A stretch of 54,268 bases of DNA from Clostridia bacterium (lineage in GTDB: Bacteria; Bacillota; Clostridia; Oscillospirales; Acutalibacteraceae). Below the pieces are notes generated by a model. That model was not told the origin of the DNA, searched no databases, and worked only from the letters and a program-made list of their open reading frames with translations. Location: positions 1 through 54,268 of the forward strand of contig JAFZOL010000002.1 in assembly GCA_017550625.1 (NCBI GenBank), given 5' to 3'. The position numbers and the translations under genes are program-made. Every line of letters begins with the position of its first letter. Within the stretch, counting starts at the first letter, position 1. This document shows positions 9,561-54,000 of this stretch, piece after piece.

Positions 9561-10412
9561 TCAGGGCAGCTTGTAGGCGCGCACGTAATCGACGCGGAAG
9601 TCGGCGGCGAACGAAGATTTGTCGTTCTTTTCGATATTGCCCGACCAGCCGAACGTGGGCTTGCCGCTGCCGCCGTCCACCTCGCACGAGAGGATCAGGT
9701 ATTCGGGCTTCGTCGAAACGCCGCCGTAGGCCGTGCGGGCCACCTCGCGCCGGTTAATGTAAAAGACGTATTCCTCCGGCGTCCACTTAAGGCCGTAGGT
9801 GTTGAAGTTCTCGTAGGGGTCGTTGCCGAGCCGGAAGACGCCGATGTTTTTGTAGCGGGTCTTGAGGTCGTAGCCGCTGAAATGGATGTTCTGCGTCACG
9901 CGCCAGCTCTTTTTGCCGCCGAGACGCCAGAACGGCGACTCCATGATATCGAGTTCGGCGCCGAGCAGGGCGTTTTTTGACGTGTCGTGGACGCTGTCGT
10001 TGGTCATCCAGAACGCCGACCACAGCCCCCTGCCCTTGGGCAGGACGCAGCGGCACTCGAAATAGCCGTAAGCCTGCTCGAATTTGTGCTGCGTGCTCAG
10101 ACCGCAGGTATACCACCCGGGGCCGAACTCGCCGTCGGGACGGTACTGCGTGCGGATCACGAGCTCGCCGTTTTCGACGCGCGCCTGCGCGGCGCTCCAG
10201 TAGCCGCCCTTGCGCATGCCGAAGCGCTCGTGCGCGCCCCATTTGGCGGGGTCGGGGGCGTCGCCGTCGAAGTCGTCCGAAAACGTCAGCTCGAAGGCGT
10301 CCGGGTCGATCGTGCGGCTCCCCTTTTCGGCGCTTTTCGAGTGGAACACCCGTAAGATCGCGTTCACGAACGCGATGAGGCCGTTCAGAAACCAAGCCGG
10401 GAATACGTTCAC
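9561..10412 (-). CDS. GH16 family endo-beta-glucanase-like enzyme
   Basis: A 283-residue glycoside hydrolase family 16 protein. The catalytic signature is 'GAELDIMES' with nucleophile Glu153, Asp155 and acid/base Glu158. Upstream strands such as 'FSDDFDGDAPDPAKWGAHERFG' and 'YGYFECRCVLPKGRGLWSAFWM' are typical of the laminarinase/lichenase branch. The N-terminus (FLNGLIAFVNAILRVF) is a hydrophobic amphipathic helix without a clear signal cleavage site. The start is a GTG at 10412 preceded by GGAGGGA with 7-nt spacing. Beta-1,3- or mixed-linkage glucan is a reasonable but unproven substrate. This is one of three GH16 genes in the window. Confidence 0.9.
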   Translation of the reverse strand: MNVFPAWFLNGLIAFVNAILRVFHSKSAEKGSRTIDPDAFELTFSDDFDGDAPDPAKWGAHERFGMRKGGYWSAAQARVENGELVIRTQYRPDGEFGPGWYTCGLSTQHKFEQAYGYFECRCVLPKGRGLWSAFWMTNDSVHDTSKNALLGAELDIMESPFWRLGGKKSWRVTQNIHFSGYDLKTRYKNIGVFRLGNDPYENFNTYGLKWTPEEYVFYINRREVARTAYGGVSTKPEYLILSCEVDGGSGKPTFGWSGNIEKNDKSSFAADFRVDYVRAYKLP

Positions 10413-12130: not shown

Positions 12131-12304
12131 TCACCCGTTGTCTTCGGACGCGCCGGGGGCGTCGGAGGCGTCGGACTGTTCCGGGGAGGGGGCCTTCTTT
12201 TTCTTCGGCGCGGTTTTTTTCGTGTCGGGGAAGTATTTTTCGCGGATCTCCTTCGGGAAATACGCCGCGGGCTCCACATAGGGCAGGCTTGCTTTCTTTT
12301 TCAT
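12131..12304 (-). CDS. 57-aa Lys/Pro-rich protein coupled to the retron RT
   Basis: A small protein of 57 residues whose ATG overlaps the reverse transcriptase stop as ATGA, a classic coupled arrangement. The N-terminal half ('LPYVEPAAYFPKEIREKYFPD') is hydrophobic/aromatic and looks foldable or partner-binding; the C-terminal half (TKKTAPKKKKAPSPEQSD and an acidic tail) looks disordered. No family is recognised. The tight coupling argues that it is translated together with the RT and may bind it, the msDNA or an effector. Confidence 0.65.
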   Translation of the reverse strand: MKKKASLPYVEPAAYFPKEIREKYFPDTKKTAPKKKKAPSPEQSDASDAPGASEDNG

Positions 12305-13254
12305 GGCTGTTCCTCCGGTGTTTTTTTCGGCTGCGCGGCCTCTTTGAGCCACGCGGCGACAAGCGTTTTATATCCGCGCATCTCTTCGTTTTGCGGTTCG
12401 ATCGAAAGGACGTAGTTGACGCGTCCCATAAGGCTCATAAGATAGTCGGCGGGCGGCGTCGGGTCGCCCCGGAACGAGAGGTGGTCCGCCGCGCCGTATT
12501 TTTCGCAGTAATGGACCTCCTGCCGGATCGCGCGTTTATACTCCGCCGGGACGCCGGGGCGCTCGTTCACGATGACGCCGGTGACCTGCTGCCGCCTGCC
12601 CTGCCGCAGGACGGCGGTTTTTTTCTCGTTCAGGAAGAGGCCCATCTTTTTGAGCCGCGCCTTCACGAACGCGATGAGGGGCGCGGGGTCGAAATCGCCC
12701 GAAAAGGTCATGTCGTCGCAATAGCGGGTATAGGCGATTTCGCGGGCGGCGCAGTAACGCCAAACGGCGTCGTCGAAATCCTTCATCACGATGTTCGAGA
12801 TCGCGGGGGACGTGGGCGCGCCCTGCGGGAGCGAATCCTTATACACGCACAGCATCGCGAGCAGCACGCGGTTGCTCTCGGAATACCGCGACGCCGGAAA
12901 CGCTTTTTTCTTCACCAAGGGATAGGTGATGTGGTCGAAGAACCCGCTGATATCGAGCTTGAGCACCGTTTGCCTGCCCACGTGCGGCAGGGCGTTGCGC
13001 TTCGTGCTGCCGCCCGGGCGGTAAGCCGAGGCGCAGGGCGAGATCTCTTCAAGCGGCAGCAGCGTTTCGGCGATGCGGGTCTGGATCGCCTTGAGAAGCG
13101 GGTCGGGGATATGGAGCTCCCGCGTGCCGCCGCCGCGCTTCGGGATCCGCACGGGGCGGTAGTGCTTCGTCACGGCATGGCTGACGCCGTAAAGCGTTCT
13201 GCCGGAAAAACCGAGATCCCGGGAAAGAGAGGAAAACTCCCGATATATGATCAT
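12301..13254 (-). CDS. Retron reverse transcriptase
   Basis: A 317-residue RT that copies part of a cognate structured RNA into multicopy single-stranded DNA. RT motifs occur in order: catalytic Asp101 in 'LKLDISGFFDHI', 'LPQGAPTSPAISN' (142-154), the active site YCDD (178-181, Cys where Ala is usual) and 'GLFLNEKKT' (205-213). Two retron hallmarks are present: NALPH (87-91), matching the NAxxH motif of region X, and VTG (224-226) of region Y. The length is normal for retron RTs and there is no maturase domain. The ATG at 13254 follows AGGAGGGG by 9 nt; a longer frame to 13302 would run through the RNA end. The non-coding RNA lies immediately upstream on the same strand. No fused effector domain is present. 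Confidence 0.93.
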   Translation of the reverse strand: MIIYREFSSLSRDLGFSGRTLYGVSHAVTKHYRPVRIPKRGGGTRELHIPDPLLKAIQTRIAETLLPLEEISPCASAYRPGGSTKRNALPHVGRQTVLKLDISGFFDHITYPLVKKKAFPASRYSESNRVLLAMLCVYKDSLPQGAPTSPAISNIVMKDFDDAVWRYCAAREIAYTRYCDDMTFSGDFDPAPLIAFVKARLKKMGLFLNEKKTAVLRQGRRQQVTGVIVNERPGVPAEYKRAIRQEVHYCEKYGAADHLSFRGDPTPPADYLMSLMGRVNYVLSIEPQNEEMRGYKTLVAAWLKEAAQPKKTPEEQP

Positions 13255-13279
13255 AAGGCGTTCTCCCCTCCTTCCGGGC

Positions 13280-13457
13280 GCGGAACGTAACTGAAAAAGC
13301 ATATCGCCGTTGCGAGCTGTATCTCTGAGCCCGTGAAGCGGGCTGCAATACAGCGAAGCGAACGCGATTGAGCGAAGCGAATCCTGCGGGGATGCCGCGT
13401 ACCGACCGCGACTCGCGGCCGGCGCCGTAAAAAAACGGGTCTGCGCTTACGTTCCGC
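13280..13457 (-). ncRNA. Retron msr-msd RNA
   Basis: On the minus strand, repeat a1 GCGGAACGTAA (13457-13447) and repeat a2 TTACGTTCCGC (13290-13280) are perfectly complementary over 11 bp and bound a 178-nt RNA. Right after a1 comes GC, giving the conserved AGC context with the candidate branching guanosine at 13446, as in classical retrons. The msr part has three small hairpins (13425-13438, 13402-13422 and 13386-13398). The msd part is one long hairpin: an outer stem 13303-13311/13361-13368, then GCTGTAT/ATACAGC and AGCCCG/CGGGCT inside 13316-13354. A CTTTTTC run precedes a2. The RT start codon lies 26 nt beyond a2. Predicted msDNA is about 80-90 nt; the exact ends need experiment. Confidence 0.88.
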
Positions 13458-13502
13458 CGTGATATCTCCATCCGCGTACGCCGACGCGAAATTGGGGCGT
13501 GT

Positions 13503-13540
13503 TTTGCAGGGGGCCCGCCCGGGCGGGCGGACCTGCGGGT
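13503..13540 (-). other. GC-rich hairpin in the retron leader
   Basis: Between the promoter and a1 the minus strand carries a strong hairpin with outer arms GCAGG/CCTGC and an inner CCCGCCCGGGCGGG palindrome. It lies outside a1/a2; it may insulate or stabilise the RNA 5' end. Confidence 0.5.
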
Positions 13541-13550
13541 TCCTGATTCG

Positions 13551-13580
13551 AGTATAGCACATCCCCCGGGGAAAATGCAA
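13551..13580 (-). promoter_or_regulatory. Retron promoter
   Basis: On the minus strand TTGCAT (13575-13580), an 18-bp spacer and TATACT (13551-13556) would start transcription near 13544, about 87 nt before a1, and drive the RNA, RT and downstream genes. Confidence 0.7.
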
Positions 13581-53913: not shown

Positions 53914-54000
53914 ATGAAGTCGTCGGCTTCGCCGACTGATGAAGTTGTTCGCTTCGCTCACGAATGAAGACGGTCGCTTCGCTCCCTAATGAAGCAAAGA
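53914..54000. repeat. Tandem TTCG hairpin array, 25-bp period
   Basis: ATGAAG recurs at 53914, 53939, 53964 and 53989, exactly every 25 bp. Each unit holds a small hairpin core of the type TCGGCTTCGCCGA or TCGCTTCGCT. Related in style to the array at 15966. Confidence 0.72.

What the first reader, a model, noticed from the sequence alone, without database searches (positions are those of the whole stretch)
12301..13580. A complete retron: RT plus msr-msd RNA
The RT at 13254-12301 carries NALPH and VTG, two motifs that distinguish retron RTs from group II intron and other RTs. Just upstream on the same strand is a 178-nt segment bounded by perfect 11-bp a1/a2 repeats (13447-13457 and 13280-13290), with AGC immediately after a1, three msr hairpins, one long msd hairpin and a CTTTTTC run before a2. 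A promoter lies 100 bp further up. All parts of a retron are seen together, in an unusual YCDD-type RT.
Basis: partly seen in the sequence, partly recalled or inferred. Interest (0 to 1): 0.92.

Follow-up and report, generated by a model that had tools for sequence, protein, structure and literature searches.

The report
Solo Ec107-type retron without linked effector
This is a genuine bacterial retron, a reverse transcriptase with the RNA it is expected to turn into a small hybrid DNA, related to the long-known E. coli retron Ec107 and, like it, sitting alone without an obvious partner toxin gene.

Summary
The minus strand carries an intact 317-aa RT (13254-12301) and a 178-nt RNA gene bounded by exact 11-bp a1/a2 repeats. 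The RT is a retron RT: best PADLOC model RT_Ec107-like, 406 bits; it lies in an 18-row clade (100/98) inside a 30-row group that includes the E. coli retron at the slmA-pyrE site, apart from intron-type RTs. The RNA structure is kept by compensatory change: 31 of 39 pairs change on both sides in at least one of 18 relatives. A covariance model built without the E. coli sequence finds that RNA at E 2.4e-9. YCDD is not unusual here: 18 of 18 close relatives have it, and Ec107 is published as YCDD. No neighbour gene family occurs in more than 3 of 30 loci, so this looks like a two-part solo retron. Unexpected detail: the msd encodes, near the predicted 3' end of the DNA, a two-base-pair mini-hairpin with a covarying stem and a GNA loop in 9 of 14 relatives that hold the segment, a DNA fold known for stability. 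New member of a known kind.

The parts
12301..13254 (-). retron reverse transcriptase (317 aa; NALPH, YCDD, VTG)
13280..13457 (-). msr-msd RNA, 178 nt
13447..13457 (-). a1 repeat
   Evidence: covarying helix 1
13446..13446 (-). predicted branching guanosine (2'-OH primer)
   Evidence: G right after a1, invariant in the 18-row alignment; branching itself not testable here
13425..13439 (-). msr hairpin 1 (approximate ends)
   Evidence: helix 2 (3 of 3 pairs change on both sides; in the window row one of the three aligned pairs is not standard and the single-sequence fold uses a shifted register)
13402..13422 (-). msr hairpin 2 with GCGAGTCGC core
   Evidence: helix 3 (7 of 9 pairs change on both sides, 2 invariant); a GCGAGTCG-type core also found upstream of 11 of 12 more distant RTs, the twelfth (L080) having only 90 nt upstream
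13291..13393 (-). predicted msd template; the DNA product would read as the + strand 13291-13393 (about 103 nt)
   Evidence: inference by alignment with the E. coli RNA and the 107-nt product length in the name Ec107
13303..13368 (-). long msd hairpin (helices 4 and 5)
   Evidence: helices 4 and 5; these two were picked by scanning the same alignment
13328..13344 (-). msd tip hairpin
   Evidence: helix 6 (4 of 5 pairs change on both sides)
13372..13378 (+). d(GCGAAGC) mini-hairpin in the predicted DNA product, conserved position
13353..13359 (+). second GCGAAGC copy, in an 18-nt direct repeat with the first
13280..13290 (-). a2 repeat
13551..13580 (-). weak promoter candidate (TTGCAT / TATACT, extended -10 TGC)
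   Evidence: sequence (8 of 12); not reported

Best explanation
A solo retron of the Ec107 type. One transcript carries msr-msd and the RT. a1 pairs with a2, placing G13446 at the priming site. The RT recognises the msr, most likely at the GCGAGTCGC hairpin, starts DNA from the 2'-OH of that G and copies the msd from about 13291 to about 13393, while host RNase H removes the template, leaving a DNA of about 100 nt joined 2'-5' to an RNA of about 65-70 nt. Shown by computation: gene integrity, retron ancestry, conserved RNA structure, homology to the E. coli RNA at the Ec107 site. Inferred: transcript, product, branch, ends. Function: most likely the RT-msDNA complex acts as a sensor or antitoxin in phage defence together with a partner encoded elsewhere in the genome (about 45% on this last step, from analogy with other retrons); no linked effector was found.
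For: RT matches retron RTs of solved structure (Ec86 E 4e-30) and RT_Ec107-like better than any typed model (406 against 326 bits for III-A); the E. coli RT at the slmA-pyrE site fits the same model best (437 bits). Tree. Compensatory changes. Model R1, with only the window among the 26 sources as a training row, finds the E. coli RNA (2.4e-9) and RNAs in L075, L081 (two), L082, L083, L070, L071 and L073 at E below 0.01, each just upstream of an RT frame. One copy in its genome. RT frames open at full length in 18 of 18 close loci. dN/dS about 0.3 in two pairs of the more distant group (L082/L083, L070/L071); the three close-clade pairs tried could not be computed.
Against: No linked effector, so defence is unproven. 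The window's own promoter is weak. No Rfam family matches the RNA, but none reaches its threshold in the E. coli locus either. RT is below the cut-offs of the NCBIfam retron models. DNA product, branch and ends were not testable. R1 gave nothing in L069 and L072 and only partial matches (E 1.2 and worse) in L074; L080 lacks the upstream region. One distant member, L081, has about 190 extra residues behind the RT without a Pfam match, so the wider group may not be solo throughout.
Confidence: 0.88

Rival explanations
1. A three-part defence retron whose effector is the 57-aa protein overlapping the RT stop codon (12304-12131), possibly with the DUF503 gene behind it.
For: ATGA overlap suggests translational coupling; same strand, short distance.
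Against: The closest relative L059 (70% identical RT; listed as L005) has no such ORF and a transposase-like gene behind the RT; I saw no similar ORF in the lists of the 12 other close loci; no match in 25 other genomes of the genus; its only relative among 295 genomes of the order, its own aside, lies in L087, whose listed ORFs show nothing RT-like to the eye. The DUF503 gene too has no match in 25 other genus genomes.
Confidence: 0.06
2. A group II intron, DGR or other RT with an accidental repeat upstream.
For: The RVT_1 domain is shared by all.
Against: The RT lies apart from the seven intron-type RTs in the tree; region X and Y motifs present; retron-type RNA with covariation; the intron-type RT L010 hits general RT and DRT models and no retron model at E 1e-20.
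Confidence: 0.01
3. A degenerate leftover of a type III-A retron that lost its phosphoribosyltransferase and small DNA-binding protein genes and makes msDNA without function.
For: The one III-A row is the sister of the group; solo state; the related RT in E. coli L054 is annotated as a pseudogene.
Against: 18 of 18 close loci keep a full-length RT frame and the RNA changes by compensation, which needs long-term selection.
Confidence: 0.1

Closest known systems
Retron Ec107 (Eco5), Escherichia coli
   Same: YCDD RT (43% identical over residues 21-302), GCGAGTCGC msr hairpin, a1/a2 layout, RNA found by the same covariance model, lone position between chromosomal genes (PMC6868368 passages). That L053 is Ec107 rests on PADLOC's model and a recalled site.
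   Different: Host phylum; shorter a1/a2 (11 against 17 pairs, G-U included); part of the segment with the mini-hairpin is a gap in the E. coli RNA and no such hairpin lies at that place.
Type III-A retrons (phosphoribosyltransferase plus small protein)
   Same: Sister RT in the tree (one row); second-best PADLOC models.
   Different: The representative L055 has YADD and a phosphoribosyltransferase and a small protein gene upstream; absent here.
Retron Ec86 (Eco1)
   Same: RT by sequence (E 4e-30); msr-msd-RT order (recalled).
   Different: Ec86 belongs to another type with its own effector (recalled).

Membership tests
Retron (classical: RT + msr-msd) | RT with region X NAxxH and region Y VTG | tested here: met
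   the motifs as described in PMC6868368 passages
Retron (classical: RT + msr-msd) | RT inside the retron group, apart from group II intron-type RTs | tested here: met
   (43 rows)
Retron (classical: RT + msr-msd) | a1/a2 inverted repeats with G after a1 | tested here: met
Retron (classical: RT + msr-msd) | msr stem-loops and long msd hairpin, conserved | tested here: met
Retron (classical: RT + msr-msd) | branched msDNA with 2'-5' bond | not testable with these tools
   needs expression and debranching
Ec107-like retron | RT scores best with RT_Ec107-like | tested here: met
Ec107-like retron | YCDD catalytic box | tested here: met
   PMC6868368 passage for Ec107
Ec107-like retron | homologous msr-msd RNA | tested here: met
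   L053 2529-2331
Ec107-like retron | no linked effector, chromosomal intergenic site | tested here: met
   for the window; for relatives
Type III-A retron | PRTase and small DNA-binding protein genes in the operon | tested here: not met
   neighbours are a divergent alpha/beta hydrolase, a 57-aa ORF without a family, DUF503 and a 378-aa protein without a family
Tripartite retron defence operon | linked effector gene | tested here: not met
   no PADLOC or Pfam effector in the three genes behind the RT; divergent hydrolase in front
Tripartite retron defence operon | phage defence | not testable with these tools
   needs plaque assays
Group II intron | intron-type RT with maturase family score | tested here: not met
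   TIGR04416 77 bits against a cut-off of 300

The most novel reading that the evidence does not exclude
In this Clostridia-type branch of solo retrons, selection acts on the DNA product itself: the msDNA carries, about 15 nt before its predicted 3' end, a d(GNA) mini-hairpin, a fold with special stability in DNA and known to protect 3' ends from exonucleases. It would fold behind the RT and either set the termination point or cap the DNA, making a self-protecting msDNA in retrons that have no linked effector.
Probability: 0.25. Interest if true: 0.6.

Novelty: new member of a known kind. Interest (0 to 1): 0.38.

Why it matters
It turns the lone Ec107 into a broader group with a defined RNA: 18 close loci with an alignable RNA and 12 more distant ones, of which 8 are found by the RNA model, and no neighbour gene family in more than 3 of the 30. 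That makes the question of what a retron without linked effector does testable by comparison and in laboratory strains. The RNA has no Rfam match. The mini-hairpin, if real, offers a handle on how retron DNA ends are set (PMC8989520, abstract and passages, proposes that the structure of the DNA and remaining RNA causes termination) and a natural protective element for retron-based DNA production.

Tried and rejected
Effector as neighbour: for the 17 close loci other than the window, the nearest ORF of 90 aa or more on each side was taken from a crude ORF finder, which may include spurious ORFs. Pfam scanned all 34, PADLOC 20 of the 34: one strong defence hit, AbiEi beside L003; L079's weak hits (E about 0.001) belong to an IstB-like ATPase. 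All-against-all over 385 flank ORFs (50 aa or more, up to 7 kb each side, E 1e-4) of 30 loci gave no family in more than 3 loci; genes at the same distance recur only in the two pairs of close relatives L070/L071 and L082/L083. Several contigs are short (for example 810 bases behind the RT in L068, 90 in front in L080), so flanks are incomplete. The nearest neighbours of the 12 more distant loci were not scanned with Pfam or PADLOC.

Empty-site test: the hydrolase has homologues in 19 of 26 genus genomes, its own included, but the best other one is 55% identical; the DUF503 gene and the 57-aa ORF and, except weakly in G011, the 378-aa gene have no match there, so no clean empty site could be defined.

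Viral origin: no close relative in viral contigs (two at 28-31% identity); phage and plasmid relatives are below 60% identity.

Rfam: no match; with permissive settings four hits well under their gathering scores.

Mini-hairpin, results against: nearest-neighbour DNA folding does not predict it, though I do not know whether those parameters hold a GNA bonus; an xyGNAy'x' word somewhere in the msd is expected by chance in about 7 of 18 sequences and is seen in 16, so the case rests on the fixed position and covarying stem; 4 of 18 relatives lack the segment, L004 and L061 do not form both pairs, L065 and L066 have AAA loops, L076 a two-base loop; in the more distant group the search behind msr hairpin 2 found such a word at a comparable place only in L074, and in L053 and L075 only further on, at the tip hairpin. 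Of the five measures, 'pairs with a change on both sides' is reached by 107 of 500 shuffles and 'further pair types' by 88; the other three by none. GCGAAGC is not enriched in the window as a whole.

Not used: structure prediction, as sequence evidence was decisive.

Full report
What is there. On the minus strand, 13254-12301 is an open frame of 317 aa with NALPH, YCDD and VTG behind a clear Shine-Dalgarno stretch (GGAAGGAGG). Upstream lies a 178-nt segment bounded by an exact 11-bp inverted repeat, 13457-13447 and 13290-13280. No tRNA and no Rfam family at its gathering score were found in the window.

The RT. By sequence it is closest among solved structures to the Ec86 RT (E 4e-30) and other retron RTs, with group II intron RTs behind. 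PADLOC's RT_Ec107-like model scores 406 bits, III-A models at most 326. It is below the cut-offs of the three NCBIfam retron models that it matches (St85 family 208 against 235). Matches at E 1e-40 or better occur in 19 of 394 genomes of the order but 2 of 26 of the genus, the window's own genome counted in both, which suggests gain and loss (inference). I compared it with the E. coli retron at the slmA-pyrE site, L053, found by searching that site. I take L053 to be Ec107 because PADLOC's Ec107-like model fits its RT best (437 bits) and because I recall that Ec107 lies beside pyrE; a paper search for retron, Ec107 and pyrE together found nothing. [quoted passage not shown] In a tree of 43 rows the window RT is in an 18-row clade (100/98) within a 30-row group (98/92) that holds L053; the one III-A row is its sister, and the intron-type RTs are separate. 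The tree tool warns of long branches and of uneven composition in some rows, L053 and L067 among them. YCDD is in 18 of 18 close and 9 of 12 more distant members (the other three have YSDD); NAxxH in 17 of 18 and 10 of 12; VTG in 14 of 18 and 12 of 12.

The RNA. The 18 upstream regions align. RNAalifold finds a1/a2, two msr hairpins and the msd tip hairpin, 20 of 25 pairs with a change on both sides. With two further msd helices and two more a1/a2 pairs, the helices picked by scanning the alignment and so favoured by that choice, 31 of 39 pairs change on both sides, 85.5% of cells pair, and the covariation score is 0.475 against 0.193 in shuffles and 0.09-0.12 in slid versions. A covariance model from these 18 was run on 26 sources that included only one of its own sequences, the window. 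It found the L053 RNA (2.4e-9, from just before a1 to near the end of a2) and RNAs in L075, L083, L082, L081 (two), L070, L071 and L073 at E below 0.01. None of the seven intron-type loci gave a match at E up to 10. L069 and L072 gave none either, and L074 only partial ones. The E. coli RNA has a 17-pair a1/a2 with the AGC in the same place. I recall that Ec107 msDNA has 107 nt of DNA on G18 of a 75-nt RNA; the G after its 17-nt a1 is number 18, and counting 107 nt back from a2 gives a 5-nt overlap with a 75-nt RNA, so the recalled figures fit (sequence; counted by hand). Transfer by alignment gives for the window G13446 as the branch and DNA from 13291 to about 13393, 103 nt (inference).

Promoter. 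The window's own candidate matches 8 of 12 positions with an extended -10 and is not striking alone (12 of 200 shuffles as good). L059, L077, L064 and L065 have 12 of 12 promoters ending roughly 31-52 nt before the RNA and L066 11 of 12; five loci have nothing better than most shuffles. A transcript starting before a1 is therefore likely but not shown for the window.

No effector found. The genes on either side differ from locus to locus: transposase, acyltransferase, ornithine cyclodeaminase, glutamine amidotransferase, TrmO, alanine racemase, radical SAM enzyme, glycosidases and so on; one locus (L003) has AbiEi. The window's neighbours are a divergent alpha/beta hydrolase, a 57-aa ORF that overlaps the RT stop by four bases, DUF503 and a 378-aa protein without a family. 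The 57-aa ORF is absent behind the RT of the closest relative and from 25 other genus genomes; its one distant relative in the order search lies in a locus whose ORF list shows no RT to the eye. So the retron is a solo cassette, as at the E. coli site. In the wider group this may not be universal: the RT frame of L081 runs on for about 190 residues without a Pfam match, which could be a fused partner domain. PMC8867640 (passages) states that some retrons seem to lack a clear association with nearby effector genes, so the solo state itself is known; PMC12548924 (passages) describes another retron without apparent effector, Bth1, that still makes DNA.

An extra feature. 14 of the 18 aligned sequences have letters at columns 120-126; I read them as the DNA product. 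The window, L059, L063 and L067 read GCGAAGC; L077 and L078 ACGAAGT; L060 AGGTACT; L064 and L079 GCGCAGC: 9 of 14 are a GNA loop on a two-pair stem. L065 and L066 have AAA loops on such a stem, L076 keeps the stem with a two-base loop, L004 and L061 do not form both pairs (segments). The two pairs are kept in 92.9% of 28 cells with 7 double changes; slid versions give 4-50%. PMC4686876 (passages) states that DNA mini-hairpins with GNA or GNNA loops and at least two G-C pairs are extraordinarily stable, that GCGAAGC melts at 78 degrees, and that attaching one to a 3' end gives resistance to 3'-exonucleases; the stems with A-T pairs here are not strictly of that kind. A library search for retron together with these terms listed 15 of 17 papers, none of which holds 'retron'; that is the only search behind this statement. 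The loop preference (G and A on the DNA strand) points to the DNA rather than the RNA as the selected molecule, but sequence recognition by the RT is not excluded, and the folding program did not predict the hairpin.

Verdict. A well-supported new member of the Ec107-type retrons. What deserves a second look is the broad clade without linked effector and the mini-hairpin.

Noticed in passing
window 12131-12304, and L087 1456-1671: Small proteins sharing a YFPKEIRxKYF-like stretch in two genomes in different contexts; no Pfam or NCBIfam match and only a chance-level PADLOC hit for the window copy.
   Followed up: partly
L081 9468-10964: RT of the Ec107-like group with about 190 extra C-terminal residues and no Pfam match there; a possible fused partner domain; YSDD box.
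   Followed up: partly
L081 4617-4811 and 9223-9393: Two retron RNAs about 4.6 kb apart on one strand, each before an RT frame, the first of which has a stop inside (L035): a tandem pair with one decaying copy.
   Followed up: no
L054 1335-2294: The RT at the E. coli slmA-pyrE site is annotated as a pseudogene with an internal stop in strain 2020CK-00188.
   Followed up: no
window 53926-53982: Three GCGAAGC words spaced exactly 25 bases on the minus strand, hinting at a 25-base tandem repeat near the window end.
   Followed up: no
window 9561-10412: Glycoside hydrolase family 16 gene downstream of the retron.
   Followed up: no
L003 7247-7987: An AbiEi gene 334 bases behind the retron RT of Butyrivibrio, the only strong defence neighbour among those scanned.
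   Followed up: partly
control genome: Methanosarcina acetivorans is the one of 14 control genomes that matches RT_Ec107-like.
   Followed up: no
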